NCBI RefSeq assembly: GCF_008017535.1
Contig: NZ_VRUA01000016.1
Coordinates: 1-64,000 of the forward strand
Direction: 5' to 3'
Source: Ottowia flava
GTDB lineage: Bacteria; Pseudomonadota; Gammaproteobacteria; Burkholderiales; Burkholderiaceae_C
Length of the DNA: 64,000 nucleotides
Position 1 is the first letter of the stretch. Each line of letters begins with the position of its first letter. The translations under genes and the position numbers were made by a program. Of this stretch, positions 891-63,995 are shown in pieces. The notes under the pieces were generated by a model, which ran no database searches, was not told the DNA's origin, and was given only the letters and a program-made list of their open reading frames with translations.

Positions 891-951
891 AAAATGCTAT
901 TAAAACGGGAGCGGCCTACGCAATTGGGTCGGAGGCCAGAAGTCCATTTCC
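891..951 (+). repeat. Interspersed ~60-bp repeat, copy 1 (diverged)
   Basis: Forward copy. The left half (ATGCTATTAAAACGGGAGC, then GGCCTACGCA) and the right half (GGAGGCCAGAAGTCCATTT) match the family pattern seen clearly at 21624-21689. Intergenic. Confidence 0.55.
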
Positions 952-1174
952 CTCACCAACCTACTGTACCCGGTCGAGCAGGAAATATCCCCAAGTCCGG
1001 ACCGCGCCGGACGCCAGCGACGGGTTGAAGCACCTGGCGAGCGCCCCCCGGTCGCGAGGAACGCCATCGGTAAACTCAGTTGGTTCTACCTGGTAGCGCC
1101 TACGCTGACTTGTTGCCCAAGTTTGGCGTCCACGGGGGAGCGGACTCGGGCTCGTACCCCGCCGACAACGCGCG

Positions 1175-1703
1175 GCAAAGGAGCGTCGCCGTTATGTGTT
1201 TGTGGCCATCGACAGGGCTACCCGCTGGATGTTCATCGCCATCAAACAACACAAGACAGCGGCGTCTGCTAAAGCGTTCGTGGCGGCCGTGCGCCGGACT
1301 ACCCCATTCAAGACCCGCGTCACCTGGAAGGACCACAGCCAAGCGCTCACCGATCGGCTGTTTGGCGGGCGCACCAGCCAGCCCACGGCCGAGCACGAGT
1401 TCGACCAGCTGTGCTAGGCGCCGGGCATTGAGCACCGCCTGAGCGAACCGAGGACACCGCAGACCAACGGCATGGTCGAGCGTTTCAATGGGCGGCTCAG
1501 CCAGGTGCTGCGCCCACACCACTTCAACGGCGCCGAGGACCTGGAGAAGACGCTGCACAGGTTTGTCTGGCTGTACAACCACCACTTGCCGCAGAAGGCA
1601 CTGGGACACGCTGCCGCCGGCGCAAGCGCTCAAAGCTTGGAAGATGAAAGCCCCTGACTTATTCCTCAAGAACGTGCGCAAGCATCCGGGACCCCACGTA
1701 GGC
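1175..1703 (+). pseudogene. IS481-type transposase remnant
   Basis: The translation reads like the integrase-core part of IS481-family transposases: RRYVFVAIDRATRWMF, then GIEHRLSEPRTPQTNGM, VERFNGRLSQVLR and LYNHHLPQKALGH. It is broken in three ways. The N-terminal helix-turn-helix half is missing. An in-frame TAG at 1415-1417 interrupts the core. A frameshift near 1607-1612 moves the C-terminal tail (ALKAWKMKAPDLF) into another frame. No terminal inverted repeats are recognisable. It lies less than 100 bp from the end of lolA. Inactive. Confidence 0.85.
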
Positions 1704-1795
1704 GGCGTCGCAGTCACGCCATGGCGCCTCACTCGTCGGGCAGGCCGATCTGGCGGTCAGGTCGCACGGCACCCCTTCCGCGATCAAGCCCTGCG

Positions 1796-2476
1796 CTACT
1801 GCTTGAGCACATCCGCCCCTTTGGGCGGCGTGAAGACGAACTGGCTGGTCGGCACGGCGGCGTTGACATCAAAACCCGAGAAAGTGAGCACCGAGCGCTG
1901 GCCAAAGCTGTCGAGAATGTCCAGGGTGCCCAGTTCCGGGCCCTTGCTGCCGGGCTTGAAGCCCACGCGGATGGTCTGCAGCTGGCCGTCACGCGACTTG
2001 GGCGTGGCTTTCACCCACTGCTGCCCGTCCTTTTCGGGTTCTTCGGCCAGGGTGAAGTCTTTTTCCAGCGCTTTGACGTCGGGCGCCGCGGCGACGATGG
2101 CGGCAGGCGTGCTGCCGAGAACCTGTTCCTGCTGGCGTGAGGTGACCTGGTTCAGGTCGACGTCGTACAGCCACAGCGTCTTGCCGTCGGCGACGATGGT
2201 CTGTTCAAACGGCTTGGCGTAGGTGAAGCGGAATTTGCCGGGGCGCTGGAATTCAAACGTGCCGGTTTGCGTCTTGCTGCGGCCGGGCTGGCCGTCCTTG
2301 CCGGGCGCAGTCACGACCTGGGTGAAGTTGGCCTTGCCGCTGCGCGTGTCCTTGACGAACTGCGCCAGGCTGTCCAGACCACCTGCCCACGCGGCGGGCG
2401 CGGCCAGCCCGAACACGACCGCGGTAGCGGCCAGACGGTGGCGAAACACGGAAGAGCGGATGCGGTGCAATGTCAT
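1796..2476 (-). CDS. lolA: Outer-membrane lipoprotein carrier protein LolA
   Basis: Periplasmic chaperone that takes lipoproteins released by LolCDE across the periplasm to the outer-membrane receptor LolB. The 226-residue product starts with a Sec signal peptide (hydrophobic AATAVVFGLAAPAAWA, cleavage after AWA). It then shows the typical LolA pattern: SLAQFVKDTRSGKANFTQVV, the beta-strand segment GTFEFQRPGKFRFTYAKPF, and the C-terminal FTPPKGADV. The ATG at 2476 is preferred because it places a normal-length leader before the hydrophobic stretch; an in-frame ATG nine codons upstream is possible. Neither has a strong Shine-Dalgarno sequence. It lies downstream of ftsK on the same strand, as in other Burkholderiales. 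The IS481 remnant lies just beyond its stop. Confidence 0.93.
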   Translation of the reverse strand: MTLHRIRSSVFRHRLAATAVVFGLAAPAAWAGGLDSLAQFVKDTRSGKANFTQVVTAPGKDGQPGRSKTQTGTFEFQRPGKFRFTYAKPFEQTIVADGKTLWLYDVDLNQVTSRQQEQVLGSTPAAIVAAAPDVKALEKDFTLAEEPEKDGQQWVKATPKSRDGQLQTIRVGFKPGSKGPELGTLDILDSFGQRSVLTFSGFDVNAAVPTSQFVFTPPKGADVLKQ

Positions 2477-2591
2477 GGCGTATTGGAGTGAAGGCGGGTG
2501 CAAAGGTTCGGCCAGCGACGAATTGAAACACCGACTTGCCTGCCGGACACATATGGCACCAAGACAGTCACGGTGCGTGGCTCGTCACACG

Positions 2592-2656
2592 CTTTATTTT
2601 CTACCAATTCAGGAGCTGCTCGCGCAATCTGGGTGCGGGCCAGCGGCCTAAAACAC
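2592..2656 (+). repeat. Interspersed ~60-bp repeat, copy 2 (diverged)
   Basis: Forward copy between the ftsK stop and the start of lolA. The core is GGAGCTGCTCGCGCA, followed by GGGTGCGGGCCAGCGGCC and AAAA. It abuts the ftsK stop codon by one base, so it may form part of the ftsK 3' end. Confidence 0.5.
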
Positions 2657-2657
2657 C

Positions 2658-5006
2658 TTATTCGGCGCCGCGCGACGGCGCCAGAATCTCGCGCTGGCCG
2701 CGCCCGTTCATCGCGCTGACCAGGCCGGCCTTTTCCATCGCGTCCAGCAGGTTGGCGGCCTTGTTGTAGCCGATCGACAGGTGGCGTTGCACCAGCGAAA
2801 TGCTGGCCTTGTTGTTGGACAACACAATCTGCACCGCCTTGTCGTAGAGCGGATCGGACTCGCCGCCGCCTTCGCCGCCAAAACCACCCTCGCCGTCTTC
2901 ACCATCGACCGTGCCGCCTTCCAGCACGCCTTCGATGTAGTTGGGTTCGCCCTGGGCCTTGAGGTACTCGACCACGCGGTGCACTTCGTCGTCGCTGACA
3001 AAGGCGCCATGCACGCGCTGCGGAAAGCCCGTGCCGCTGGGCATGTAGAGCATGTCGCCCATGCCCAGCAGCGCTTCGGCGCCCATCTGGTCGAGGATGG
3101 TGCGGCTGTCGATCTTGCTGCTGACCTGGAAGGCGATGCGCGTGGGGATGTTGGCCTTGATCAGGCCGGTGATCACGTCCACGCTGGGACGCTGGGTGGC
3201 CAGGATCAGGTGAATGCCCGCCGCGCGCGCCTTCTGCGCCAGGCGGGCGATCAGCTCTTCGATCTTCTTGCCGACCACCATCATCAGGTCGGCCAATTCG
3301 TCGATCACGACAACGACGTAGGGCAGGCGCTCCAGCGGCTCGGGGTCGTCCGGCGTGAGACTGAAGGGGTTGTAGATGAACTCGCCGCGCGCCTTGGCCT
3401 CGTCGATTTTCTGGTTGAAGCCGGCCAAGTTGCGCACGCCGGCCTTGCTCATCAGCTTGTAGCGGCGCTCCATCTCCGCCACGCACCAGTTCAGGCCGTT
3501 GGCGGCTTGGCGCATGTCGGTGACCACGGGCGCCAGCAGGTGCGGAATACCTTCGTAGACCGACATCTCCAGCATCTTGGGGTCGATCATCAGCACGCGC
3601 ACGTCCTTGGGCTCGGCCTTGTAGAGCAGCGACAGGATCATCGCGTTGATACCCACCGATTTTCCCGACCCAGTGGTACCGGCCACCAGCACGTGCGGCA
3701 TCTTGGCCAGATCGGCCACGACGGGTTTGCCCACGATGTCCTTGCCCAAGCCCACGGTCAACAGCGACTTGGCGTCGTTGTAAACCTGCGAGCCGAGGAT
3801 TTCGGACAGGCGGATGGTCTGGCGCTTGGCGTTGGGCAGCTCCAGCGCCATGTAGTTCTTGCCGGGAATGGTCTCGATCACGCGGATCGACACCAGCGAC
3901 AGTGAGCGCGCCAGGTCCTTGGCGAGGTTGACCACCTGCGAGCCTTTGACGCCCGTGGCGGGCTCGATCTCGTACCGGGTGATGACCGGGCCGGGCGCCG
4001 CGGCCACCACGCGCACATCGACGCCGAAGTCCTTGAGCTTTTTCTCGATCAGGCGGCTGGTCATCTCCAGCGTTTCGGGCGCCACGCTTTCCTGGTGCGC
4101 CGGTGCGCCGTCGAGCAGGTCGACCTGCGGCAGGTTGCTGTCGGGCAGTTCGGTGAACAAGGGTTTTTGCTTTTCCTTGGCCACGCGGTCGCTCTTGGGC
4201 ACGGTGGCGATGGTCGGCTCGATCAGCACGGGCGCGGGGTGCTGCTCTTCGATCACCTCGCGCTCGTGGTGGATCACCTCTTCGCGTTCGCGGGCCGCCT
4301 GCTTACCGGCGGCCACGTCCTGGGCGATTTCACGCCGCTCGCGGCGCGATTCGACCAGACCGTACAGGGCGCCGCCGATGCGCTCGGCCACCTGCGTCCA
4401 TGAGAAGCCGAACAGCAGCGACACGCCAAAGATCAGGGTCAGGATGCCCAGCAGCGCAGAGCCGGTGAAGCCGAGCCATTTCATCGCCAGCGGGCCGCCC
4501 AGGTAGCCCACAACCCCGCCGGCAGCGCCTGGCAAGGCGTCGTCCCAACGGTACAGGCGCGTCCATTCCAGGCCGCTGCTGGCCATCACCACCAGAATCA
4601 GGCCGATCCAGAACACCCAGTGCGCGGTTCGGATGCGTTCCCACACCGCGGCCCAGCCGCGCAACGGTCGTCGCGCTGGGCGGCTGCCGCGCAGCCAAGC
4701 CCGCACGCCGCGCAACCAGGCGCTGAGGGCCGCCGCCACGCACCACCAGGCCGAGAAGCCCATCAGCACGTACATCAGGTCAGCCAACCAGGCGCCGAGC
4801 TTGCCAGCCCAATTGCGCAGTGGACCACCAGCGCCGGAGGTGGACCAGGCCGCGTCTTGCGCCGAATAGCTCGACAAGGCCATCACCAGAAAGATGGTGC
4901 CGGCCAGGCCGATGACCAAAATCACTTCTTGCGCGAAGCGGCCGATGCCTGCGCGCGGCACGTCCGTGCCCGCGTCGGCGTTGAAGGTATTGAGAGGGTA
5001 AGCCAT
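2658..5006 (-). CDS. ftsK: DNA translocase FtsK
   Basis: Septal ATP-driven DNA pump that clears chromosome dimers and activates XerCD at dif during division. The 782-residue protein has four N-terminal membrane segments (about residues 28-46, 78-98, 129-147 and 180-200). A short linker of about 100 residues follows, rich in Arg and Glu. The motor carries Walker A (GTTGSGKS, about 443-450), Walker B-like stretches ([21 protein letters not shown]) and the FtsK signature [13 protein letters not shown]. The C-terminal gamma winged helix, which reads KOPS sites, runs from about residue 715 ([16 protein letters not shown] to NGRGQREIL). The length fits the short-linker FtsK of betaproteobacteria. 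It is followed by lolA and preceded by a separately transcribed Crp/Fnr gene. Confidence 0.97.
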
Positions 5007-5097
5007 GGGTTCAACTACAACTTTCGTAGCTTACCGCACAGGCCGCACCAGCGGAAGCAGCGGCTGAGCAGGCGCCGTGGCGCGGGGCCAGATTCCG

Positions 5098-5772: not shown

Positions 5773-5858
5773 TTCAAATCCCTCCAGACATCAATCGACC
5801 GACCGAGTCCTTAAAATCTTCGAACTCAAGCGGTGCGAATATCCTATCGATGATGTGA

Positions 5859-6881
<1,023 letters not shown>

Positions 6882-6903
6882 TCTTAGCAACGGCGATTCA
6901 GGC

Positions 6904-6909
6904 TATAAT
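6904..6909 (+). promoter_or_regulatory. Likely -10 element for rpmB-rpmG
   Basis: A perfect TATAAT lies about 155 bp before rpmB, just after the trxB stop. No good TTGACA is found 16-18 bp upstream, so the promoter call rests on the -10 hexamer and on its position ahead of a ribosomal operon. Confidence 0.4.
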
Positions 6910-7064
6910 TTAAGGCTTAGCCGAAATCCGCGATTCGTTGCTACGAACGGACGTACAGGATTTCAGCAGGGTTACCGCCACCCTATTTCCTGGCGAGGTG
7001 AGGTCTCGGCGAGTTGCGGCGCAGCCTGCAGCGCCCAGCCAGACCGTGTGATCGGAGCGATTGA

Positions 7065-7298
7065 ATGGCACGCGTGTGCGAAGTCACGGGCAAAGGCCCG
7101 ATGGTGGGAAACAACGTTTCTCACGCCAACAACAAAACCAAGCGCAGGTTCCTCCCCAACCTGCAATACCGTCGCTTCTGGGTCGAGAGCGAAAACCGTT
7201 GGGTGCGCCTGCGTGTGTCCAGCGCTGCTCTGCGCCTGATCGACAAGAATGGCATTGACGCCGTGCTCGCAGACATGCGCGCCCGCGGCCAAGCCTGA
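7065..7298 (+). CDS. rpmB: 50S ribosomal protein L28
   Basis: Large-subunit ribosomal protein of 77 residues, the usual size. It opens with [20 protein letters not shown] and continues [13 protein letters not shown], both L28 signatures. Only one cysteine is present, so this is the zinc-free form. It is followed 23 bp later by rpmG, the common rpmB-rpmG pair. The spacer contains an AGGGAAAGGAACG ribosome-binding region for rpmG. Confidence 0.98.
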
Positions 7299-7321
7299 TT
7301 TAACAGGGAAAGGAACGCACC

Positions 7322-8861: not shown

Positions 8862-8922
8862 AAGTTTGCTATATTTTTAGTAGCCGCCTGCGCTTACTCA
8901 GAGCGCGCTACAACCTTATTTC
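8862..8922 (+). repeat. Interspersed ~60-bp repeat, copy 3
   Basis: Forward copy. TTTGCTATATTTTTAGTAGC and CGCCTGCGCTTA form the left half; AGAGCGCGCTACAACCTT is the right half. It lies between the convergent lipoprotein and LuxR genes and supplies the last ten or so codons of the LuxR protein (VVARSE-stop). Confidence 0.65.
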
Positions 8923-13624: not shown

Positions 13625-14587
13625 ATGGTCACAGGCCGCTTCGCCCCTTCCCCCACCGGCCCGCTGCACGCCGGCTCGCTGGTCGCCGCGCTCGCCAGCT
13701 GGCTGGACGTGCGCGCCCAGCGCGGACGCTGGCTGGTGCGCATTGAGGATGTCGACCTGCCGCGCTGCGTGCCCGGTGCGGATCGCCTGATCCTGCAGCA
13801 GCTGGCCGCCTGCGGCCTGGTGCCCGACGAGCCGCCGGTCTGGCAATCGCTGCGCGGCCCGCACTACGAAGCGGCCCTGCGGCGCCTGGTCGACGGTGGG
13901 CTGGCCTACGGCTGCGCCTGCTCGCGCAAGGACATCGCGCTGGCGCAGGCGGCGCTGGGGCGTTCGCCGGAGCGCGGTGTTGAACTGCCCTACCCTGGCA
14001 CCTGCCGGCCAGAGCGCGGCGGCTTGCGAGGCCTCACACCTAGGGCATGGCGCTTGCACATCGATCGTTGTGAACAAAACTGGCCTCCAAGGCTTGTGGG
14101 AGCTGCGCAAGCAGCTATCCATTTGGAAGCAAATCACCGCGGCACCGTCAACTGGTCAGACCGGCGACTGGGCCCGCAGCGGCAGGCCGTGGCCGAAGCG
14201 GTCGGCGATTTCGTGCTGCGCCGCGCGGACGGCCTGTGGGCCTACCAGTTGGCCGTCGTGGTGGACGACGCGGCCCAGGGCGTCACGCACATCGTGCGCG
14301 GCGAAGACCTCATCGACAACACGCCACGCCAGCTCGTGCTGCAGCGCGCATTGGGCCTGCCCCACCCAACCTACCTGCACACGCCGCTGGTGCTGGCCGA
14401 AGACGGCGAAAAGCTGAGCAAGCAGAACGGCGCTCTGGCGCTCGACACCTCCGACCCGCTGCCGCGGCTGCGCGCCGCCGCCGAACACCTCGGTCTGCCC
14501 GCCAACAACGCCGACACAGTCCCCGATGCCCTGGCGCAATGGGTCGGCGCGTGGCGCGAACGCTGGGCAACCCACGCTGACGCTTGA
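13625..14587 (+). CDS. gluQ: Glutamyl-Q tRNA(Asp) synthetase
   Basis: GluRS paralogue lacking the anticodon-binding domain; it attaches glutamate to queuosine in tRNA-Asp. The 320-residue product has the HIGH-equivalent PLHAGS at residues 13-18, RIEDVDLPR, the zinc-site cysteines (CACSRKD and TCRP) and the KMSKS-equivalent KLSKQ near residue 263. Compared with the E. coli protein as I recall it, the segment between the zinc site and the FVLRRADG strand is about 20 residues longer. That extra part is encoded by an interspersed repeat (14070-14135) read in frame. The gene converges on tRNA-Lys and its terminator. Confidence 0.92.
14070..14135 (-). repeat. Interspersed ~60-bp repeat, copy 4, inside gluQ
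   Basis: Reverse-oriented full copy. The complement reads AAATGGATAGCTGCTTGCGC, then CAAGCCTTGGAGGCCAG and TTTTGTT. It lies wholly inside gluQ without a stop or frameshift and encodes about 22 residues ([20 protein letters not shown]). Confidence 0.8.
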
Positions 14588-15750: not shown

Positions 15751-15819
15751 AAAAACTACTAATTTAATAGCTTCCCGCGCACATTCATGTAGGGCTGCAG
15801 CCCTATTTGGCTTGAATAC
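15751..15819 (+). repeat. Interspersed ~60-bp repeat, copy 5
   Basis: Forward copy in the tcdA-valS divergent region. ACTAATTTAATAGCTTCC and CGCGCA form the left half; GTAGGGCTGCAGCCC, then TATTTGGCTTGAAT, form the right half. Confidence 0.75.
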
Positions 15820-21623: not shown

Positions 21624-21689
21624 TTGCTTTTATTTTGATAGCTGCCCGCGCAGATTCCTCTAGGGCCAGAGGCAGATTTGATTCAAAAC
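21624..21689 (+). repeat. Interspersed ~60-bp repeat, copy 6 (reference copy)
   Basis: Clearest copy. Left half: TTTATTTTGATAGCTGC, then CCGCGCAGATT. Middle: CCTCTAGGG. Right half: CCAGAGGCAGATTTGATT and CAAAA. CTGCC and GGCAG can pair as part of an imperfect dyad. It fills the gap between the Nudix gene and the cysM stop codon exactly. Confidence 0.85.
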
Positions 21690-25251: not shown

Positions 25252-25310
25252 TCAATGAAATCGACCTGTAACGCTTGACCTATCTACGCAGTCAGCTATT
25301 TTTTTTCTAG
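25252..25310 (-). repeat. Interspersed ~60-bp repeat, copy 7
   Basis: Reverse copy. The complement reads AAAAAAAATAGCTGACTGCG, then TACAGGTCGATTTCATTGA. Its left part supplies the final codons of the SDR gene (LLEKK-stop). Confidence 0.7.
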
Positions 25311-26261
25311 CAAACCGCTGGCAGGTGAAGCATGGCGCAGCCGCAGACCCAGCTCGCGCTTGAGCCGCGTGTTGTCGAGGCGACGCGATTCGCTCATGAA
25401 AGACAGTAGGGTTGGGCTCATGTGCTCCATCGCCCACGCGCGTGCGACCCGCGGCGGCCTGTCCAGGCCCAACAGATCAGCCGCCAGGTCGAAGTACTCG
25501 CCCATCTTCAGCTGGCTGTCGTCGTTCGTGTTCACGGTGCGCAGCGGCAGGCCCCGCCACAGCGCCAGCACGCAGGCGCGCGCCAGGTCGTCGGCGTGGA
25601 TGTGGTTGGTGTAAACGTCGTCGTCCGCCGCCAGCACTGGCGTGCCGGCCAGCAAGCGCGCGCGCGGCGTGCCGCCCGCGCGATCCGGTGCGTAGATGCC
25701 CGGGATGCGCAGCACGCTCGCGCGCACTCCGGCGCGGCGTCCGAAGTCACGCACCCGGCGCTCGGCTGCCACGCGGCGGGCGGCGCGCGGCGTCAAAGGG
25801 CGCAGCGCAGTGGTCTCGGACACCAGGGCGCCCGCGCAATCGCCGTACACGCCACTGGTGGAGGCGTAGACCAGCGCCCGCGGCGGCGTTCGGCGCGCCA
25901 GCGCCCGCAGAAGCGCCGCTGTGCGCGCGTCGTCCCCACCCTGCGCCGGCGGCGGCGCCAGATGAACCACGTGGGTGGCCACCCCGGCCAGGCGCCGCAG
26001 GCTGACGGGATCGTCCAGGTCTCCCCGCAGGCGTTGCACAGCGGTCACTCCCGGCCGCTCCGGCGTCCCTGCGGCGCCGGGGTCAGATGGACCAAGCTCC
26101 CCGCGCACCAGCGCCGCCAGGCGAACCCGCGGGGCGAGCAGCCGCGCGACACGCACGCCGACATCGCCGTAGCCGACGATCAGCACGCGCGCCCGACGGA
26201 AGCGACTGGGCAGCGCCCCCAGGGGAAAAAGGTTTGAGGGCAAAATCGGAAGGTTTGGCAT
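25296..26261 (-). CDS. SDR-type NAD(P)-dependent epimerase/dehydratase-like protein
   Basis: 321 residues with an extended SDR Rossmann fold. The nucleotide-binding motif is VLIVGYGDVGVRVARLL (GxGxxG). HVVHLAPPPAQGG, VYASTSGVYGDCAG and NHIHADDLARACVLAL are SDR landmarks. The catalytic Tyr is present (VYGD), but the YxxxK lysine is not found; the segment reads TPRAARRVAAERRVRD. This matches YeeZ-like atypical SDR proteins, whose function is unclear. Its last codons come from an interspersed repeat. It diverges from the ferredoxin reductase gene with only 29 bp between start codons. Confidence 0.82.
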   Translation of the reverse strand: MPNLPILPSNLFPLGALPSRFRRARVLIVGYGDVGVRVARLLAPRVRLAALVRGELGPSDPGAAGTPERPGVTAVQRLRGDLDDPVSLRRLAGVATHVVHLAPPPAQGGDDARTAALLRALARRTPPRALVYASTSGVYGDCAGALVSETTALRPLTPRAARRVAAERRVRDFGRRAGVRASVLRIPGIYAPDRAGGTPRARLLAGTPVLAADDDVYTNHIHADDLARACVLALWRGLPLRTVNTNDDSQLKMGEYFDLAADLLGLDRPPRVARAWAMEHMSPTLLSFMSESRRLDNTRLKRELGLRLRHASPASGLLEKK

Positions 26262-27350: not shown

Positions 27351-27410
27351 ATACAATTTTGATAGCTGGCCGCGCAGATTGCTGTAGGGCTGGCACCGTT
27401 TTTTATTGAG
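27351..27410 (+). repeat. Interspersed ~60-bp repeat, copy 8
   Basis: Forward copy between the reductase and the Bug gene. Left half: ACAATTTTGATAGCTGGC and CGCGCAGATT. Right half: CTGTAGGGCTGGCACC and TTTTTTATTGA. It ends ten bases before the Bug ATG. Confidence 0.8.
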
Positions 27411-33650: not shown

Positions 33651-34976
33651 CTACTCAGAGCGGCCCGCCTCACGGTTGCGCCGCCGCAATTCGGTCAATT
33701 TTTCACCGATCCGAATCTCCAACCCTCGTGGCACGGGCTGGTAAAACTGTTGGGGCAGTATGCCCTCGGGCAGGTAGTTCTCACCTGCGGCAAAAGCGTC
33801 CTGCTCGTCGTGTGCGTAGCGATACCCCTTGCCGTAGTCCAGATCGCGCATCAATTTGGTGGGTGCGTTGCGTAGATGCATCGGAACGGGGCGCGTCGTG
33901 TCTTGTTTGACAAACGCCTTGGCCGCCTTGTACGCGTTGTAGACCGCGTTGCTCTTCGGTGCAACAGAAAGATACACAATACATTCGGCCAGTGCCAATT
34001 CCCCCTCGGGCGAGCCCAGGCGTTCGTAGACCTCGGCCGCATCCAGCGCCAGGCGCAGCGCGCGCGGGTCGGCCAGGCCAATATCCTCGCTGGCCATGCG
34101 CACCATCCGGCGCGCCAAGTAGCGCGGGGCGGCCCCGCCATCGAGCATGCGCACCAGCCAGTACAGCGCGGCGTCAGGGTCGCTACCGCGTACCGCCTTG
34201 TGCAGCGCGCTGATGGTGTCGTAGAACTGCTCGCCGCCTTTGTCGTAGCGGCGCAGGCGCTCGCCCAGCACGCGCTGCAGCCACGCGGCGTTGATGGTGT
34301 CCAGCCGCTCGGCACGGGCGGCCACGGTGAGGGTCTCCAGCGTGTTCAAAAGCCGCCGCGCATCACCATCGGCATAGGCGATGAGCTGCTGCTGCGCTTC
34401 GCTTTCGATAGCTGGCTGCGCAGGTTCGGCGCTGGCCCGATCCAGAATCTTCTTTAAGTCATCTTCCCCAAGCGGTTGCAGCACGTACACCGCAGCGCGC
34501 GACAGCAGGGCCGAGTTGACTTCAAACGAAGGGTTTTCGGTGGTCGCGCCGATGAAGGTGAACAATCCGCTTTCGACATGCGGCAAGAACGCATCCTGTT
34601 GGCTCTTGTTGAAGCGGTGGACCTCGTCCACAAACACGATCGTGCCTTGCGGTGTCAAGCTGTCGCGCGCCTTCTGCGCCAGTTCGACCGCCTCGCGGAT
34701 GTCCTTGACACCGCCCAGCACCGCGCTGACCGGGATGAACTGCGCATCAAACGAATCCGCCATCAAGCGCGCGATCGTGGTCTTGCCGGTGCCCGGTGGC
34801 CCCCACAGGATCAGGCTGTGCGGCTGGCCCGACTCGAACGCGATGCGCAGCGGCATGCCTTCGCCCAGCAAATGCTGCTGGCCCACCACTTCGCCCAACG
34901 TACGTGGGCGCAGCCGCTCGGGCAGCGGCACGTGCAGCGAAGCGGAATCAGCGGGAGGGACTTTGGCGCCGGGCAT
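33651..34976 (-). CDS. rarA: Replication-associated recombination protein A
   Basis: AAA+ ATPase (MgsA/WRNIP1 family) that acts at stalled replication forks with SSB. 441 residues from the ATG at 34976. PLPERLRPRTLGEVVGQQHL precedes Walker A (GPPGTGKTT) and Walker B (FVDEVHRFNKSQQDAF). FIGATTENPSFEVNSALLSR is the sensor region, and the C-terminal tetramer domain has CIVYLSVAPKSNAVYNAY. The start is uncertain since the frame is open to 35072 and no good ribosome site is seen. An interspersed repeat (34401-34456) lies within the coding sequence and encodes SAEPAQPAIESEAQ in a region where relatives vary in sequence. Confidence 0.95.
   Translation of the reverse strand: MPGAKVPPADSASLHVPLPERLRPRTLGEVVGQQHLLGEGMPLRIAFESGQPHSLILWGPPGTGKTTIARLMADSFDAQFIPVSAVLGGVKDIREAVELAQKARDSLTPQGTIVFVDEVHRFNKSQQDAFLPHVESGLFTFIGATTENPSFEVNSALLSRAAVYVLQPLGEDDLKKILDRASAEPAQPAIESEAQQQLIAYADGDARRLLNTLETLTVAARAERLDTINAAWLQRVLGERLRRYDKGGEQFYDTISALHKAVRGSDPDAALYWLVRMLDGGAAPRYLARRMVRMASEDIGLADPRALRLALDAAEVYERLGSPEGELALAECIVYLSVAPKSNAVYNAYKAAKAFVKQDTTRPVPMHLRNAPTKLMRDLDYGKGYRYAHDEQDAFAAGENYLPEGILPQQFYQPVPRGLEIRIGEKLTELRRRNREAGRSE
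34401..34456 (+). repeat. Interspersed ~60-bp repeat, copy 9, inside rarA
   Basis: Forward copy on the plus strand, antisense to rarA. GCTTTCGATAGCTGGC and TGCGCAGGTTC, then GCTGGCCCGATCCAGAA. The rarA frame stays open across it. Confidence 0.6.
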
Positions 34977-35078
34977 GCGGCATTCTATGAACGCTGGACT
35001 GAACCGCCCCCGGCTTTTGAGGAGGCCAATCCATCTGAGAGGATTTAGCCATGGGCTGCTGCCGGGGAACACAGAGGG

Positions 35079-35251: not shown

Positions 35252-35627
35252 TGGTGGAGCTGGGGGGACTTGAACCCCCGTCCGCAAATCTTCCACGCCC
35301 AGTTCTACATGCTTAGCGGTCTGATTTGAGTCTCACCACCTGAACCGCGCAGTCGCACGCTGTACAGGCAGCCAGTACCCTTGAATCTCGCCTGCGCCCA
35401 AGGTACCCGGGCACAAGCCAGCCGATGTGAATTCCCCCGCAGCCGGGACGGCTTGCGCCGCCCTTGCCCAGCCCATCGGCCTGCTGTTGCGAGGCTCACC
35501 GGTGTTTAAGCGGCGAGTGCGAAACGTTCGTCGTTTGCAGTTAGTTTTTTTCAGCGGTTTAGCGAGGTGACTGAACCTCGGCATGCCCTGAGGCGATTCC
35601 AACCCACGTCGAAACCAATGCAGCCCC
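35252..35627 (-). ncRNA. ssrA: Transfer-messenger RNA (tmRNA)
   Basis: 376-nt RNA that rescues stalled ribosomes with SmpB. The 5' end GGGGCTG (35627 leftward) pairs with CAGCTCC before the encoded ACCA. The tRNA-like T-arm is CGGGGG-TTCAAGT-CCCCC. The tag frame reads ANDERFALAA-stop, a typical betaproteobacterial tag. The 5' segment ATTGGTTTCGACGTGG is the standard start. It lies between gph and rarA on the same strand. Confidence 0.97.
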
Positions 35628-42449: not shown

Positions 42450-43040
42450 ATGGAGCAACCCTTGAAGAACGCCACTTTTTCCAAACTGCCATTTGCTATT
42501 CTTTTTGCAGCTGTCTGCGCAGTTTCCACGGGAGCTCACGCCCAAAATGACAGCAAACGTGCGCTCGCCGTCAAGCTGGCCCAGATGCAGCAGAAGGCCG
42601 ACGGCGAAGCGATGATCGAGCAGCTGACCGGCACCGCTGTGCAGCCCCTGCTGGCTGGCTGGTCGCAGCGCCTCGACGAAACCGTTCCTCCGGCACGCCA
42701 GAAAGAAGTGCGCGACAAGCTGGACGTCGAACTCAAGAAGTTCGCCGACAGCACGCACAAGGCCGTCGAAGCCCAGACAGCCAAGGCCGCAGAGGCCGCG
42801 CTGGTGCCCATCTTCATGGAAAAGCTGACCGAGGACGAGCTCAAGACCATCGTCGCCTATATGGAGTCGCCCGTCAGCGCCAAATTCCAGGCCCTCGGCC
42901 CGGATGCCACCAACGCCTGGGCCAAGCGCATCATCGACGCGACCAAGCCGCAAGTCGAAAGCGGCGCCAAGACGTTCGAAGCTGCCGCCAACCGCATCGT
43001 GAGCAGCTCTGGCGGGTCGTCCGCCCCTGCCAAGAAATAA
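42450..43040 (+). CDS. DUF2059 exported protein
   Basis: 196 residues. The signal peptide core (LPFAILFAAVCAVSTGAHA) is followed by a helical DUF2059-type domain: ALAVKLAQMQQKADGEAMIE, then LTEDELKTIVAYMESPVSAK, the conserved motif of this family. It ends in a Ser/Ala-rich tail. Function of DUF2059 proteins is unknown; they are periplasmic. It starts two bases after the gyrA stop and is probably cotranscribed with gyrA. The DNA for the signal peptide core resembles the left half of the interspersed repeat. Confidence 0.85.
   Translation: MEQPLKNATFSKLPFAILFAAVCAVSTGAHAQNDSKRALAVKLAQMQQKADGEAMIEQLTGTAVQPLLAGWSQRLDETVPPARQKEVRDKLDVELKKFADSTHKAVEAQTAKAAEAALVPIFMEKLTEDELKTIVAYMESPVSAKFQALGPDATNAWAKRIIDATKPQVESGAKTFEAAANRIVSSSGGSSAPAKK
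42491..42530 (+). repeat. Interspersed repeat, left half only (copy 10), in DUF2059 signal peptide
   Basis: ATTTGCTATTCTTTTTGCAG, then CTGTCTGCGCAGTTTCC, matches the left half (TTTGCTAT, then TTTnnTAGCYGCYYGCGCA). The right half is absent. It encodes FAILFAAVCAVS of the signal peptide. Partial match, so lower confidence. Confidence 0.45.
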
Positions 43041-45145: not shown

Positions 45146-47152
45146 GTGTACGACACCGAATTTCTCGACATTCCCGCCTTGCGCAGTGTGCGCGGTAGCG
45201 TGCGCCTACCCGGATCCAAGAGCATCTCCAACCGGGTCCTGCTGCTGGCCGCGCTGTGCGAAGGCCGCACCGTCGTGCACGACCTGCTGGATTCGGACGA
45301 CACGCGCGTCATGCTGGACGCCCTGCGCGCGCTGGGCTGTGGTGTGCAGGTCGACGGTTCCCGCGCCACGATTGATGGCCTGGGCAACCGCCCACGGCAA
45401 CCGCAGGCCGAGCTGTTCCTGGGCAATGCTGGCACGGCGATGCGCCCGCTCACCGCCGCACTGGCGGTGCTGGGCGGCGACTACCAGCTGCGCGGCATCC
45501 CGCGCATGCACGAGCGCCCCATCGGCGATCTGGTCGACGCCCTGCGGGCGCTGGGCTGCACCATCGACTACCTCGGCACACCGGGTTACCCGCCGTTGCG
45601 CATCGGCCAACCCGCAGTGCGGCTGGACCAGCCGATCGGCGTGCGCGGCGACGTGTCCAGTCAGTTCCTCACGGCGCTGCTGCTGGCTTTGCCGCTGGCG
45701 GCCAGTCAACCAGGCAGACGCGATGTCGTGATCGAGGTCGTGGGCGAGCTGATCTCGCGCCCCTATGTCGAGATCACGCTGCAGCTGCTGGCACGCTTTG
45801 GCGTGCAGGTGCAGCGCGAGGGATGGTCGCGTTTCACCATCCCGCAGGGCAGTCGCTACCGCTCGCCGGGTGATATCCATGTTGAAGCCGACGCATCGTC
45901 TGCTAGCTATTTCATAGCTGCTGGCGCAATATCAGAGCCCGGCAGAGGGCCAAATGGCTTGAAAATCGAAGGCGTAGGCGAACAATCCATACAGGGCGAC
46001 ATCCGCTTTGTAGACGCCGCCCGCGCCATGGGCGCGGAGATCGACAGCGGGCCCAACTGGCTGCAGGTACGCCGCGGCGCGTGGCCACTGAAGGCCATTG
46101 ACCTGGACTGCAACCACATCCCCGACGCGGCCATGACGCTGGCCGCCATGGCGCTCTACGCCGACGGCCCCAGCACGCTGCGCAACATCGCTTCCTGGCG
46201 CGTCAAGGAAACCGACCGCATCGCCGCCATGGCGACCGAGTTGCGCAAGCTGGGCGCCCAAGTCGAAGAAGGCACGGACTTCATCCGCGTCACCCCGCCT
46301 GATTCGACCACAGGCTGGCGCGCCGCCTCGCTGCACACCTACGACGACCACCGCATGGCCATGTGCGGCTCGCTTGCCGCGTTCAATCCGGCCCGCTTGC
46401 CGGTGCGCATTCAGGATCCGCGCTGCGTCGGAAAGACCTTTCCCGACTATTTCGAAACGCTGTTCGCCATCGCCGAACCCTCGACACCTGTGCCTGTGCT
46501 GTGCGTGGACGGCCCGACCGCTTCGGGCAAGGGCACCCTGGCGGCGGCGGTAGCGCACCGGCTGGGGTACCACTATCTGGACTCTGGCGCGCTCTACCGG
46601 CTGACCGGCCTGGCCGCCCGACAGGCCCAGTTGGAGCCCGAGCCCGTCAACGAAGCAGAAATTGCTGCGCTGGCGCGGCAGTTGCCGGTGCAGTTCCGAG
46701 CCGACCGGGTATGGCTGGCTGGCGAGGAAGTCACTGAACAGATCCGGTCCGAAGCCGCTGGAATGGACGCTTCCCGCGTTTCCGCATTGCCCAGCGTGCG
46801 CGAGGCGCTCCTGAATTTGCAGCACAGCTTTGCCCGCCTGCCGGGCTTGGTGGCCGACGGTCGCGACATGGGCACGCAGATCTTCCCCTTCGCCCCGCTC
46901 AAGGTGTTCCTGACCGCCGACGCCGCCCAACGCGCCGATCGCCGCCATAAGCAGTTGATTTCCAAGGGAATTTCCGCTAATATTGACAGTCTTCGCGCCG
47001 ACTTGGCTGCACGCGACGCCCGCGATTCGTCCCGGAGTGTCGCGCCACTCCAACCAGCGCAAGATGCCCTGCTTCTGGACAATTCACAGCTGTCGGTCGA
47101 GGAATCGGTTGACCGGGTGCTTGGCTGGTGGCAGGCGCGGCAACCGTTCTAG
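45146..47152 (+). CDS. aroA-cmk: Fused 3-phosphoshikimate 1-carboxyvinyltransferase / cytidylate kinase
   Basis: 668 residues joining two enzymes. Residues about 1-445 are EPSP synthase ([48 protein letters not shown]-type late motif as [14 protein letters not shown]). Residues about 452-668 are CMP kinase ([33 protein letters not shown]). The parts join with almost no linker ([20 protein letters not shown]). The start is a GTG with no clear Shine-Dalgarno sequence. The fusion is known in Comamonadaceae. An interspersed repeat at 45905-45966 lies inside the AroA part and encodes [20 protein letters not shown]. In E. coli the matching place reads ASYFLAAAAI, so the repeat coincides with a conserved segment and adds a few residues after it. 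Confidence 0.95.
45905..45966 (+). repeat. Interspersed ~60-bp repeat, copy 11, inside aroA
   Basis: Forward, in frame. AGCTATTTCATAGCTGC, then TGGCGCAATA, then GGCAGAGGGCCAAATGGC and TTGAAAA. All parts of the family pattern are present. Encodes [20 protein letters not shown]. Confidence 0.75.
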
Positions 47153-55166: not shown

Positions 55167-55230
55167 GATTTGAATGATATTGGCCTTGCGCCGTACAACC
55201 ACCTGCGCAAGCAGCTACTGAATTTATAGT
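55167..55230 (-). repeat. Interspersed ~60-bp repeat, copy 12
   Basis: Reverse copy. The complement reads AAATTCAGTAGCTGCTTGCG, then GCGCAAGGCCAATATCATT and CAAAT. CTTGCGC and GCGCAAG can pair. It lies between the MarR gene and the hydantoinase start and forms the MarR stop codon region. Confidence 0.8.
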
Positions 55231-58800: not shown

Positions 58801-58879
58801 CGCGCTGACACTGCGCGCTCCCCTATGATGCCGGTCCGGTCCGCCCACCGTGCGGACGCTGATCGAGAGTGAGAGATTC

Positions 58880-59896: not shown

Positions 59897-59930
59897 GCGG
59901 CGCCGCCCGCCGCGCCTCGCCTTTTAAGCC

Positions 59931-60317
59931 ATGCCCGCCGTCCTCGCCATCTGCCTGGGCGCCTGCGCGGGCGCCCTGCTGCGCTGGCACCTCGGCCTGT
60001 GGCTGAACCATGCCGGCGCGCTGATGCCCTGGGGCACGCTGGCGGCCAACCTGATCGGCGGCTACCTGATTGGCCTGTTCATCGGCGTGCTCCAGCAGCA
60101 CCCCGGCATCGACCCGACGTGGCGCCTGCTGCTGGTCACCGGCTTCCTGGGCGCACTGACCACCTTTTCCAGCTTCAGCATGGAAGTGGTCGACATGCTG
60201 ATGCTGGAGCGCTGGGTGCAGGCGCTGATGACGGCGACCGCGCACCTGGCGGGGTCCTTGCTGATGACCTACGTCGGCATCAAGACCGCTGCGCTTTTCA
60301 TAGCTGCCCGCGCATGA
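59931..60317 (+). CDS. crcB: Fluoride exporter CrcB/Fluc
   Basis: 128-residue dual-topology membrane channel that expels fluoride. LAICLGACAGALLRWHLGLW, then AANLIGGYLIGLFIGVL and GFLGALTTFSSFSMEVVDML (with the fluoride-track Phe residues) are standard. Four helices. No fluoride riboswitch is visible in the 34 bp before it. Its last codons (FIAARA) are made by an interspersed repeat. Confidence 0.94.
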   Translation: MPAVLAICLGACAGALLRWHLGLWLNHAGALMPWGTLAANLIGGYLIGLFIGVLQQHPGIDPTWRLLLVTGFLGALTTFSSFSMEVVDMLMLERWVQALMTATAHLAGSLLMTYVGIKTAALFIAARA

Positions 60318-60350
60318 TCTCTTAGGACCACAGACCGATTTGCTTGTAGA
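60291..60350 (+). repeat. Interspersed ~60-bp repeat, copy 13
   Basis: Forward copy. GCTTTTCATAGCTGCC and CGCGCATGATCTC, then AGGACCACAGACCGATTTGC. It spans the crcB stop codon (TGA in CGCGCATGA) and the start region of the next gene. Confidence 0.75.
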
Positions 60351-61335: not shown

Positions 61336-62192
61336 GCCCGCCCGACCTGAACGCCCGCGCCGAGCGCGTCGTCACCCCTGAATTGGCCGCAGCCTTCGCC
61401 CGCGATGGCGCCGTGTGCCTGCGCCAGCTGCTGAACGCCGACGAAGTCGCCCTGCTGCGCGCCGGCATCGATGCCAACATCGCCACGCCCAGCCCGCGCG
61501 CCAAGGTCGCCAGCCGGCCGGACGACCCGGGCTTTTTCATTGAGGACTTCTGCAACTGGCAGGACAACGCGGCCTACCGCGACGTCATCACCCAGTCGCC
61601 CCTTGCCGCGGCCGCGGCCCGCCTGATGGGCAGCCAGCAGGTGCGCCTGTACCACGACCACATGCTGACCAAGGAGCCGGGCACGCGCCAGAAGACGCCC
61701 TGGCACCAGGACCAGCCCTACTACAACATCGACGGGCAGCAGAACGTCAGTTTCTGGATCCCGGTCGACCCGGTGGCGCGCCCGTCCACGCTGGAATTCG
61801 TCGCCGGTTCGCACCGCGGCCCGTGGCTGATGCCGCGCACCTTCATGGACCACCAGGCCAAATGGTTTCCCGAAGGCAGCCTGGCCGACCTGCCCGACAT
61901 CGAGGCGGACCGCAACGCCTTCCCCATCGTCGGCTGGGCGGTGGCGCCGGGCGACGTCATCGCCTTTCACATGCTCAGCCTGCACGCCGCGGGCGGCGTG
62001 GCGGGCGGTGCGCGGCGCCGCGTGTTTTCCGTGCGCATGCTGGGCGACGACATCACACACGCGCCGCGCAGCTGGGTCACCTCACCGCCGTTCCCCGGCC
62101 TGGCCGATCGCCTCCCGGCCGGCGTGCCGATGCAGGACGCGCTGTTCCCCTTGCTGTGGCCGACGCTGGACGGCGCGCTGAACGCTACATAA
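61332..62192 (+). CDS. Phytanoyl-CoA dioxygenase (PhyH) family protein
   Basis: 286-residue Fe(II)/2-oxoglutarate oxygenase. The iron-binding HxD is in TPWHQDQPYYNID; the distal His is in AFHMLSLHAAGG; and the 2-oxoglutarate Arg follows in GARRRVFSVR. VSFWIPVDPVARPSTLEFVA is also a family mark. The ATG at 61332 overlaps the stop of the upstream membrane protein; another ATG lies three codons earlier. PhyH relatives hydroxylate a wide range of acyl and small-molecule substrates; this one is unknown. An interspersed repeat abuts its stop. Confidence 0.88.
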   Translation: MSPPDLNARAERVVTPELAAAFARDGAVCLRQLLNADEVALLRAGIDANIATPSPRAKVASRPDDPGFFIEDFCNWQDNAAYRDVITQSPLAAAAARLMGSQQVRLYHDHMLTKEPGTRQKTPWHQDQPYYNIDGQQNVSFWIPVDPVARPSTLEFVAGSHRGPWLMPRTFMDHQAKWFPEGSLADLPDIEADRNAFPIVGWAVAPGDVIAFHMLSLHAAGGVAGGARRRVFSVRMLGDDITHAPRSWVTSPPFPGLADRLPAGVPMQDALFPLLWPTLDGALNAT

Positions 62193-62248
62193 ACCGTAGC
62201 TGGCTGCGCAGATGGTTCTAGAGCCGGAGGCCGATTTTCCTTAAAACG
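62191..62248 (+). repeat. Interspersed ~60-bp repeat, copy 14
   Basis: Forward copy. AACCGTAGCTGGCTGCGCAG, then TTCTAGAGCCGGAGGCCG and ATTTTCCTTAAAA. It lies between the convergent PhyH and modE genes and starts at the PhyH stop. Confidence 0.8.
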
Positions 62249-62255
62249 ACCCGAC

Positions 62256-63029
62256 TCAGGCGGTCAACGCCACCACCACCGCGCTTTCGTCCAGCTCGGC
62301 CACCGCGCGACTGCCGCTGCGCAATCGGTTGGGTCGCGCAGCAAAGCCGACCAATTGCAGGCCGCCCGCCAGCGTCACCACCGCCTCATCGCGCTGCACG
62401 CCGCGCGACAGGCGCGCCACCTTGCCAGCCAGCCGGTTGACCGGCACGGTGGCGCCGCGCGCGCGCGCCGCCACATCGGTCAGCGACGCCACGCGCACCG
62501 CCGTCGCCTTGCACAACGCCAGCACCGGCAAGCCGGGTGCCAGCGCCAGCAGCTCGGCACTTTCGCGGGTGATCAGCGACGCCAACTCGCCCCCATCGGC
62601 CAGGGCCAGCACGACGCGCACCATGGGGTCGCGCGCGCCATCGCTTTCCAGCCGCGCCACGCGGCAGGGCAGGTGGTTGCGCATGCTGGTGCGCGGACCG
62701 GCCAGCGCGGCGGCCGAGGGCGCGTTGATGCGCTCCAGCACGCCGCGGCGCGCCACGTCCATCTGATGCGCGGCTTCCAGCAGGCGCACGCCGGCGGGCG
62801 TCAGGCGCGCACCGCCGCCACCGCTGCCACCCACCGCGCTGTCCACCAGCGGCATGCCGGCCAGGTTGGTCAGCGTGTGGATGGCCTGCCAGGCCGCCTT
62901 GTAGCTGATGCCGGCCGTGCGCGCGGCCTGCGAGATGGAGCCCTGCTCGCCCACCAGTTGCAGGATCTGCAGGCGTTTGTCGGCCTGGGCATAGCCCATG
63001 TTCTGGGGGGAAAGCGCGCGTCGAACCAT
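62256..63029 (-). CDS. modE: Molybdate-responsive regulator ModE
   Basis: 257 residues from the ATG at 63029. The N-terminal winged helix reads LQLVGEQGSISQAARTAGIS, then YKAAWQAIHTLTNLAGMPLV and the SGGGGARLTPAG wing. Two C-terminal molybdate-binding (Mop/TOBE) domains follow (SMRNHLPCRVARLESDG, then SLTDVAARARGATVPVNRLA). ModE with bound molybdate shuts off mod transport genes. It diverges from modA with a Mo-box in between. Confidence 0.93.
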   Translation of the reverse strand: MVRRALSPQNMGYAQADKRLQILQLVGEQGSISQAARTAGISYKAAWQAIHTLTNLAGMPLVDSAVGGSGGGGARLTPAGVRLLEAAHQMDVARRGVLERINAPSAAALAGPRTSMRNHLPCRVARLESDGARDPMVRVVLALADGGELASLITRESAELLALAPGLPVLALCKATAVRVASLTDVAARARGATVPVNRLAGKVARLSRGVQRDEAVVTLAGGLQLVGFAARPNRLRSGSRAVAELDESAVVVALTA

Positions 63030-63085
63030 GGGGGGATTCTGGCGCAGCCGCTCGCGCGCCCCATGCGACGGGCGGCTGCTACACT

Positions 63086-63108
63086 CGCTATTCCGTTTAT
63101 GAATAGCG
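63086..63108. promoter_or_regulatory. Mo-box (ModE operator)
   Basis: CGCTATTC, seven-base spacer, GAATAGCG: an eight-pair perfect dyad close to the known ModE site (CGnTATAT, spacer, ATATAnCG). It lies 57 bp before modE and 46 bp before modA, in the right place to repress both. Confidence 0.8.
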
Positions 63109-63153
63109 CATCGCTTCAGCAGCGCTGCGACCGACCGTCCCAAGGATCTGCCC

Positions 63154-63912
63154 ATGTCCCGCTCCCTGCGCCGCCTGATCGCCCTTTTCGCCGCTTGCGC
63201 CGCCTCGTTCACGCTGCACGCCGAAACGGTGAACGTTGCCGTCGCCGCCAACTTCACCGAACCGGCCAAGGCCCTGGCAGCGATCCTGGAAAAGACCACC
63301 GGCCACACGGCCAAGCTGTCGTTTGGCGCCACCGGGGCGTTTTACTCCCAGATCAAGAACGGTGCGCCGTTTGACGTGCTGATGGCCGCCGACGACGAGC
63401 GGCCCGCCCGCCTGGAAAAAGAAGGCGACACCGTGCCCGGCTCGCGCTTCACCTACGCCACTGGCCAGCTGGTGCTGTGGTCGGCCAAGCCTGGTTATGT
63501 CGACGACAAGGGCGAAGTGCTGAAAGCCAACCAGTTCAACAAGCTGGCCGTTGCCAACCCCAAGAACGCGCCCTACGGCGCGGCTGCGATGGAGGCCATG
63601 GAAAAACTGGGCCTGATGGCGACGCTGCAGCCCAAGCTGGTCACCGGCGAAAGCATTGGCCAGACCTACAACTTCATCGCCACGGGCAACGCCGAGGTTG
63701 GCTTTGTCGCGCTGTCGCAGGTGCTGTACAACGGCCAACTCAAGGGCGGCTCGATGTGGATCGTGCCCGAGCGGTTGCACGCACCCATCGTGCAGGACGC
63801 GGTCACGCTCAAGCGCGCGGCCGGCAATCCCGCGGCCAAGGCCTGGATGGACCTGATGAAGACGCCCAAGACCAAGGAATTCATCCGCACCTACGGCTAC
63901 GCCGTCAAGTGA
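63154..63912 (+). CDS. modA: Molybdate ABC transporter binding protein ModA
   Basis: 252 residues with a signal peptide (LIALFAACAASFTLHA). VNVAVAANFTEPAKALAAIL is the ModA start; LSFGATGAFYSQIKNGAPFD and VLMAADDERPARL are ligand-site segments, with GESIGQTYNFIATGNAEVGF later. It captures molybdate for ModBC, expected to follow beyond the right edge. Repression by ModE through the Mo-box is likely. Confidence 0.94.
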   Translation: MSRSLRRLIALFAACAASFTLHAETVNVAVAANFTEPAKALAAILEKTTGHTAKLSFGATGAFYSQIKNGAPFDVLMAADDERPARLEKEGDTVPGSRFTYATGQLVLWSAKPGYVDDKGEVLKANQFNKLAVANPKNAPYGAAAMEAMEKLGLMATLQPKLVTGESIGQTYNFIATGNAEVGFVALSQVLYNGQLKGGSMWIVPERLHAPIVQDAVTLKRAAGNPAAKAWMDLMKTPKTKEFIRTYGYAVK

Positions 63913-63936
63913 GCAGGCGCGCATTCGGCGCGTCAC

Positions 63937-63995
63937 CTTTGAATCTTTGGCGCCGCCAGCCTTTGCTGGGTATGCGCAGCCAGCTACCATTCGAT
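63937..63995 (-). repeat. Interspersed ~60-bp repeat, copy 15
   Basis: Reverse copy after modA. The complement reads AATGGTAGCTGGCTGCGCAT, then AAAGGCTGGCGGCGCC and AAAGATTCAAAG. It may extend to the window edge. Confidence 0.75.

What the first reader, a model, noticed from the sequence alone, without database searches (positions are those of the whole stretch)
891..63995. A family of ~60-bp interspersed repeats, about 15 copies in 64 kb
Copies at 891, 2592, 8862, 14070, 15751, 21624, 25252, 27351, 34401, 42491 (half), 45905, 55167, 60291, 62191 and 63937. The shared pattern is an AT-rich start (TATTTTGATAGCTGC), CYGCGCA, a variable middle, then GAGGCCAGATTTGATT and CAAAA. Eleven run forward and four reverse. 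Most have imperfect dyads (CTGCC/GGCAG or TTGCGC/GCGCAA). I recall similar segments in other Comamonadaceae, so the family may be known in part. Its mechanism of spread, perhaps a REP-like or MITE-like element moved by a transposase elsewhere, is not obvious.
Basis: seen in the sequence. Interest (0 to 1): 0.75.

Follow-up and report, generated by a model that had tools for sequence, protein, structure and literature searches.

The report
Dispersed repeats with genome-specific centres
This bacterium carries roughly a thousand copies of a 64-letter DNA repeat whose two ends are shared with several related genera while its middle can differ from genome to genome and seems to change in step across a genome, even in a copy fixed inside a gene; how this happens is unknown.

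Summary
The repeat is real: 15 of 15 reported copies match the family profile (E<=1.4e-4); its core occurs 555 times genome-wide against 5 in a control. The genus is probably Ottowia. The unit is about 64 bp with rigid spacing: arm GCTAn8ATAGC, an imperfectly palindromic centre, GGCCnATTTn6AAA. One copy is an in-frame insertion in gluQ (window 14073-14130), present in 32 and absent from 18 of 50 relatives' loci. In 12 of 12 genomes tested the gluQ insert, as a probe, finds a dispersed family in its own genome. Seven share a GCGC-type centre; five have mutually divergent centres that hit almost only their own genome. A profile of the arms alone finds the family in all 12 and in none of 4 genomes lacking the insert. 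At shared Ottowia sites arms keep ancestry while centres tend to follow the species. No pair among 140 sampled copies of a relative exceeds 83% identity, so recent transposition is not seen there. The RAYT-like gene shows no consistent link. Most likely an old insertion-derived family of trans-recognised sites evolving in concert; the factor is unknown.

The parts
896..953 (+). copy of the repeat (profile match)
   Evidence: E 1.2e-4
2601..2652 (+). copy; no element in the orthologous gap of G146, G015 and G570; G230 has a match nearby in opposite orientation
   Evidence: E 1.2e-6
8868..8922 (+). copy; orthologue in G146
   Evidence: E 2.6e-7
14073..14130 (-). copy inserted in frame in gluQ
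   Evidence: E 1.6e-9; filled/empty comparison
13625..14587 (+). gluQ (glutamyl-Q tRNA(Asp) synthetase-like) ORF hosting the insert
15756..15812 (+). copy; orthologue in G146; fits own species profile best
   Evidence: E 8.1e-12
21626..21683 (+). best copy; same site filled in 12 Ottowia genomes compared (this one included), empty in G582, G594, G592, G576, G575
   Evidence: E 3.9e-15; (G230)
25254..25311 (-). copy; no element at the two orthologous places that could be mapped (G230, G570)
   Evidence: E 6.4e-7
27352..27406 (+). copy; orthologues in other Ottowia, empty in G574; against G579 arms kept, centre different
   Evidence: E 6.9e-10
34396..34449 (+). copy antisense inside rarA, no length difference from relatives without a match
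   Evidence: E 1.6e-5
33651..35072 (-). rarA (replication-associated recombination protein A) ORF
42495..42550 (+). copy at the 5' end of an ORF (42450-43040)
   Evidence: E 3.5e-6
45902..45959 (+). copy
   Evidence: E 1.4e-4
55173..55229 (-). copy
   Evidence: E 9.8e-9
60290..60344 (+). copy
   Evidence: E 5.4e-8
62184..62241 (+). copy
   Evidence: E 1.3e-10
63952..63991 (-). copy at the window edge
   Evidence: E 1e-5

Best explanation
The family is an old, insertion-derived set of hundreds to about a thousand dispersed sites per genome. SHOWN: each site has constant AT-rich arms (GCTAn8ATAGC ... GGCCnATTTn6AAA) around a centre of about 28 bp; centres fall into divergent genome-wide dialects; copies often sit at the same places in related species; in the genomes with divergent dialects the copy in gluQ carries that genome's dialect. 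INFERRED: one factor per genome recognises the sites and copies track that recognition, so the consensus drifts in concert. The most likely form is a self-recognition or DNA-uptake-type signal (or another chromosome-wide recognition site) kept near consensus by recognition-driven recombination, with the arms supplying a bend or A-tract context. Ongoing transposition is not needed to explain the present copies.
For: gluQ insert alone as probe: 2-35 hits in the own sample in 12 of 12 genomes; for the five divergent dialects (G054, G042, G132, G020, G063) own 3, 8, 6, 6, 35 and all 11 other samples together 1, 1, 0, 0, 0; reversed own sequence 0 in 12 of 12 (the G063 sample is loci chosen by its centre). 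Profiles grown from those five find 8-37 copies at home and 0-5 in the other 11 samples together. In G063 and G047 (10 motif-selected copies each) the centre outside the motif is 0.78 and 0.69 identical within, 0.35 between; left arms 0.45 and 0.58 within, 0.48 between; their gluQ centres are 0.85 and 0.79 like the own genome, 0.31 and 0.43 like the other. Arms-only profile trained on GCGC-dialect copies: 9-35 hits per sample in 12 of 12 gluQ-filled genomes (4 of them gave training rows), reversed 0-4, and 0 in 4 of 4 gluQ-empty genomes. Orthologous Ottowia copies fit best the own-species profile, trained on other sites, in 14 of 19 cases, 13 of 16 without rarA. G000 against G146 at 21626: left arm 13/13, tail 0.78, centre 0.27; G000 against G579 at 27352: 0.92, 0.78, 0.33. 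Element in Y if in X 30 of 41, if not in X 11 of 137 ordered pairs. G146: 140 copies, highest pair 0.83, median 0.59. A consensus of one dialect matched 0 phage records and 2 plasmid records weakly.
Against: No binding protein, uptake receptor or driver was found; only Y1 transposases were searched. Among the seven GCGC-type genomes the gluQ probe is not specific for its own genome: the own sample gave the most hits only for G146 and G015; for G120, G072, G004, G121 and G000 another sample gave more, and of 8 gluQ copies scored against seven profiles 4 chose their own (two of the eight were held against a congener's profile). Five of 19 orthologous copies do not fit their species best. 8 of 30 ordered orthologous pairs have opposite orientation, 10 of 69. 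Ten of 16 pairs in the arm/centre table come from one site with a T-rich arm, and at that site species of the same dialect type (G587, G015, G230) keep both arm and centre (0.73-0.87). Known uptake signals are much shorter (recalled) and do not arrive as a 64-bp insertion. Invariant core columns are partly owed to selection of copies by the profile.
Confidence: 0.42

Rival explanations
1. In-place copying: a master copy or an RNA/ssDNA template rewrites the centres of dispersed copies, using the constant arms for annealing, so that the family is homogenised by conversion.
For: Diverse arms flank a more homogeneous centre in G063 and G047; centre different between kept arms at sites 21626 and 27352; the loop between the GCGC blocks occurs in both orientations about its own axis (7-mers: reverse complement 194 of 11342 ordered pairs, reverse 12, complement 4), as if single-stranded hairpins were copied; exact core matches lean to the lagging strand in G146 (48 of 73, p=0.0095, or 64 of 98, p=0.003, with two choices of boundary).
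Against: No template locus or reverse transcriptase was searched for; the strand test used 100 listed of 146 matches and boundaries set after seeing GC skew, and the profile-based counts lean less; several dialects outside the GCGC type share TGACC, which looks like gradual drift rather than wholesale replacement.
Confidence: 0.22
2. Recurrent targeted insertion: each lineage has its own mobile family with the same ends, which inserts again and again into the same preferred sites, so shared sites are parallel events.
For: gluQ tree (49 rows): the empty state needs at least 9 changes, 2 of them forced by well-supported branches; empty sites exist; REP families differ between species (recalled; passages of PMC3116915 and PMC8049555 seen).
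Against: Same position in gluQ in all filled loci and same strand wherever the profile still detects the element; left arms at shared site 21626 keep more identity than random copies (0.73 against 0.50) although centres hardly do (0.52 against 0.47); no near-identical pairs among 140 copies; no linked RAYT.
Confidence: 0.2
3. Neutral relics of an ancient REP- or MITE-like burst, now decaying.
For: Star-like divergence without recent duplicates; presence at shared sites.
Against: Rigid spacing with few indels; five invariant columns in 107 copies (selected by profile); dialect-specific centres at the fixed gluQ site.
Confidence: 0.08
4. RNA-level element (terminator, attenuator or small RNA) under selection.
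For: Imperfect dyads; 59 of 86 copies outside ORFs by crude ORF calls.
Against: Orientation relative to genes is even (tandem same 18, tandem opposite 18, convergent 14, divergent 8); no covarying consensus structure in 107 copies; no Rfam match to the copies in the window at gathering scores or around the best copy at E<=1.
Confidence: 0.04

Closest known systems
REP sequences / REPINs with RAYT (TnpA-REP)
   Same: High-copy, mostly intergenic, imperfectly palindromic short repeats that differ between species and persist; a Y1 gene is present in most genomes.
   Different: Single unit of about 64 bp, not paired inverted REPs; no consistent RAYT neighbourhood; one genome with 147 core hits has no RAYT match; constant arms across genera with divergent centres.
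DNA uptake sequence dialects of Neisseriaceae (PMC3630211: search listing and start of abstract seen)
   Same: Many dispersed copies on both strands, kept at shared sites, a genome-wide dialect that differs between lineages.
   Different: Uptake sequences are 10-12 bp (recalled) and not known as 64-bp insertions; centres here differ over some 28 bp; no uptake test done.
Rickettsia palindromic elements (recalled)
   Same: Short palindromic repeat also found as in-frame insertion inside proteins.
   Different: Different sequence, length and lineage; genome-specific centres not described for them as far as I recall.
MITEs
   Same: Short non-coding insertion-derived repeats with empty sites.
   Different: Only weak TTT/AAA ends, no target duplication defined, no parent transposon known (not searched beyond Y1).

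Membership tests
REP/REPIN-RAYT | short extragenic imperfect palindrome in high copy | tested here: met
   27 of 86 copies fall in a crudely called ORF, the rest outside
REP/REPIN-RAYT | cognate RAYT gene flanked by the repeats | tested here: not met
   4 of the 30 best RAYT-like loci have a copy within 150 bp; the own genome is one of the four
REP/REPIN-RAYT | RAYT present where the repeat is abundant | tested here: not met
   G270: 147 core hits, no match; matches in 284 of 299 regardless of core count
REP/REPIN-RAYT | GTAG-type head tetranucleotide | tested here: inconclusive
   base before TAG is A in 82% and G in 18% of copies; motif definition from the abstract start of PMC3733652 and recall
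MITE | unit insertion with empty sites | tested here: met
MITE | terminal inverted repeats and target-site duplication | tested here: inconclusive
   weak TTT...AAA ends only; duplication not resolved in gluQ or at site 21626
MITE | parent transposon with the same ends | not tested
   only Y1 transposases were searched
DNA uptake sequence | dispersed, both strands, genome-wide dialect | tested here: met
DNA uptake sequence | promotes uptake or transformation via a receptor | not testable with these tools
   needs an assay
DNA uptake sequence | short motif arising in place, not a unit insertion | tested here: not met
   net insertion of 63-66 bp in gluQ
Rickettsia palindromic element-like | in-frame insertion in a protein gene | tested here: met
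   gluQ
structured RNA | covarying stem, strand bias with genes, Rfam family | tested here: not met

The most novel reading that the evidence does not exclude
A genome-wide read-and-rewrite system: hundreds of dispersed sites with constant arms whose central cassette is copied in place from the genome's current template (ssDNA, cDNA or hairpin), so that the whole set, including copies inside genes, switches dialect together.
Probability: 0.15. Interest if true: 0.95.

Novelty: new variant of a known kind. Interest (0 to 1): 0.8.

Why it matters
Short dispersed repeats are usually seen as mobile debris or fixed signals. Here hundreds to about a thousand short sites per genome keep a constant frame across at least ten genera (12 genomes) while their centres form genome-wide dialects, and the gluQ insert is a fixed marker that reads out a genome's dialect. 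That makes the question of how dispersed bacterial repeats stay alike directly testable: look for the factor by affinity capture with the dialect as bait, or look for a template. If the sites are self-recognition signals, the dialects would mark barriers to gene exchange in a large environmental group.

Tried and rejected
RAYT as driver: rejected as a general explanation, though in this genome copies do lie beside the gene (L003). RNA structure: no consensus. Rfam: none. Patchy presence as gain and loss: I first took the TAGCTGCNNGCGC counts as copy numbers and low counts as decay; this was wrong. The five low-count genomes with the gluQ insert that I sampled (G054, G042, G132, G020, G063) carry other dialects. 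The correlation of gluQ score with count (Spearman 0.78, n=28 filled loci, three Ottowia loci and one frame-disturbed locus left out) and the intact GCGC core (14 of 18 against 0 of 10) therefore measure agreement of dialect. TAGCTGAAAGTGACC as THE second dialect: it is one of several. AA/TT alternation at columns 58-59 (103 of 107 copies) could be selection for A-tracts or small inversions; not resolved. Strand bias: suggestive only. Ancestry of the rarA copy: unexplained. Papers: the results listed by the searches (lists capped; open-licence library only) showed no description of this family; PMC3733652 and PMC12306157 were searched for names of Comamonadaceae genera and related words with 0 occurrences. 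No paper was read beyond listings, abstract starts and passages.
Full report
OBSERVATION. All 15 copies exist at the stated places, 11 forward and 4 reverse. A profile grown from them and from relatives matches 15 of 15 at E<=1.4e-4 in the window and nothing in shuffled or reversed sequence at E<=0.01. In the whole 4.12-Mb genome ATAGCTGCYNGCGCA with at most one mismatch occurs 555 times against 5 for the pattern read backwards. Window density (15 in 64 kb) suggests roughly a thousand copies; the sampled relative G146 has 140 in 500 kb.

ANATOMY. 109 copies at E<1e-6 from the own genome and four same-genus relatives share one frame without net indel, and 153 profile alignments at E<=0.01 hold no gap. 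That profile was trained without gaps; with gap-tolerant single-sequence queries 3 of 31 and 2 of 31 alignments have one, and 20 of 61 in a set where my typed consensus had an extra T. The unit runs TTTGCTAn8ATAGC, a centre of about 28 bp, GGCCnATTT, and about six bases later AAA. In Ottowia the centre is TGCYNGCGCn11GCGCTRGA with species variants. The loop between the two GCGC blocks occurs in both orientations about its own axis (7-mers in columns 35-41: reverse complement 194 matching pairs, reverse 12, complement 4, identity 326, of 11342). Tail columns 58-59 are TT or AA in 103 of 107 copies. No covarying consensus RNA structure appears, and orientation relative to genes is even (gene calls there are crude).

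INSERTION. The copy at 14073-14130 lies in gluQ (window 13625-14587). Across 50 gluQ loci (30 best hits plus 20 chosen) the segment is 23-42 residues long in 32 loci (one, L231, frame-disturbed), most often 25, and 3-11 residues in 18. The usual difference of 21-22 residues, 63-66 bp, equals the element. At window site 21626 the gap between two genes holds the element in 12 Ottowia genomes compared and lacks it in G582, G594, G592, G576 and G575 (G230). So the unit inserts, and some insertions are old.

AGE AND TURNOVER. In five Ottowia regions, orthologous intergenic gaps hold the element in 30 of 41 ordered pairs if the partner has it and in 11 of 137 if not (27 further pairs had gaps under 30 bp and were not judged). 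By flank mapping 69 of 79 mapped pairs are occupied, 6 empty, 4 ambiguous; orientation is the same in 59 of the 69, and in 22 of the 30. In G146 no two of 140 copies exceed 0.83 identity and the median is 0.59, so recent multiplication is not seen there.

DIALECTS. The core count TAGCTGCNNGCGC ranges from 0 to 600 over 299 genomes of the GTDB family and is at most 7 in the 271 genomes of other families sampled from the class. I first read low counts as loss. That was wrong. The gluQ inserts of low-count genomes carry other centres, for example TAGCTGAAAGTGACC in G047 and G063, and that motif (<=1 mismatch) occurs 25 and 23 times in those two genomes. The longer G063 centre occurs 98 times with at most 3 mismatches and never in the reversed control. 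Using each genome's gluQ insert alone as probe, a dispersed family is found in the genome's own sample in 12 of 12 genomes tested (of 32 filled loci; samples of 64-100 kb; the G063 sample consists of loci chosen by its centre and so is enriched). For the five divergent dialects (G054, G042, G132, G020, G063) the hits in the own sample are 3, 8, 6, 6, 35 and in the other 11 samples together 1, 1, 0, 0, 0; reversed controls are 0. Profiles grown from these seeds give the same picture. The other seven genomes (three Ottowia, G120, G072, G004, G121) share a GCGC-type centre. Among them the gluQ probe does not single out its own genome: the own sample gave most hits only for G146 and G015, and gluQ copies chose their own profile in 4 of 8 cases scored. 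So dialect fidelity at gluQ is shown between divergent dialects, not within the GCGC type.

CONSTANT ARMS. A profile of the arms alone, with the centre ignored and trained only on GCGC-type copies, finds 9-35 sites per sample in all 12 gluQ-filled genomes (reversed 0-4, at the lowest of four thresholds) and none in 100 kb from each of four gluQ-empty genomes. The arms therefore mark the family across dialects; the other 34 of the 50 genomes with gluQ loci were not tested this way. Within a genome the arms are diverse and the centre less so: in G063 left-arm identity is 0.45 and the centre outside the search motif 0.78; in G047 0.58 and 0.69; between the two 0.48 and 0.35 (10 motif-selected copies each).

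CHANGE IN PLACE. At shared Ottowia sites, copies fit the profile of their own species, trained only on copies at other sites, best in 14 of 19 cases (13 of 16 without the coding rarA copies). At site 21626 left arms average 0.73 identity over 66 pairs (random copies 0.50) while centres average 0.52 (random 0.47). G000 and G146 share 13 of 13 arm bases and 0.27 of the centre; at site 27352 G000 and G579 share 0.92 and 0.33; but species of like dialect (G587, G015, G230) share arm and centre alike. The gluQ centres of G063 and G047 resemble their own genome at 0.85 and 0.79 and the other genome at 0.31 and 0.43. The weak points are few independent sites, a T-rich arm at site 21626, and a gluQ tree in which the empty state needs at least nine changes (two forced), so repeated gain or loss at gluQ is not excluded.

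MECHANISM. Shown: unit insertion, long residence, rigid frame, divergent genome-wide dialects, gluQ copies of the divergent dialects agreeing with their genome. Inferred: a trans-acting recogniser per genome and change in concert. Recognition-driven drive, as for uptake signals, explains site conservation, both strands, dialects, star-like divergence and scarcity on phages and plasmids (one dialect only). In-place copying explains the mosaic of diverse arms and like centres and the inverted loops better. Repeated targeted insertion explains the shared frame but not the inherited arms. I rank them 0.42, 0.22 and 0.20.

COMPARISON. REP/REPIN-RAYT shares form but fails the tested link to the transposase gene. 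Uptake-sequence dialects share the evolutionary pattern but not length or insertion. Rickettsia palindromic elements (recalled) share insertion into proteins. The listed results of my searches hold no description of this family, within the open-licence library only.

Noticed in passing
window 34396-34449: Copy antisense in rarA; 10 of 80 named loci (Ottowia, Acidovorax, Giesbergeria, Simplicispira, a Rhodoferax MAG and unnamed MAGs) match at that place, yet rarA is no longer than in relatives without a match; origin unexplained.
   Followed up: partly
L003 1459-2160: The genome's one Y1 (RAYT-like) gene has element copies on both sides, the near one just after its stop codon; most relatives examined do not show this.
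   Followed up: yes
window 35252-35627: tmRNA gene (minus strand), and four tRNA genes elsewhere in the window.
   Followed up: no
L185 (G146 gluQ): gluQ match in G146 holds one in-frame TGA, possibly a pseudogene or assembly error.
   Followed up: no
alignment A2 (107 copies, window copies included), columns 58-59 and 14-16: A-tract blocks occur as AA or TT with few mixed forms, as if strand did not matter or short segments had inverted.
   Followed up: partly
G146:C1: Strand of exact core matches changes with the sign of GC skew (48 of 73 on the lagging side); 100 of 146 matches were listed and boundaries were chosen after seeing the data.
   Followed up: partly
G015:40154 vs G146:44958; window 2600 vs G230:45271: Orthologous gaps that hold the element in opposite orientations.
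   Followed up: no
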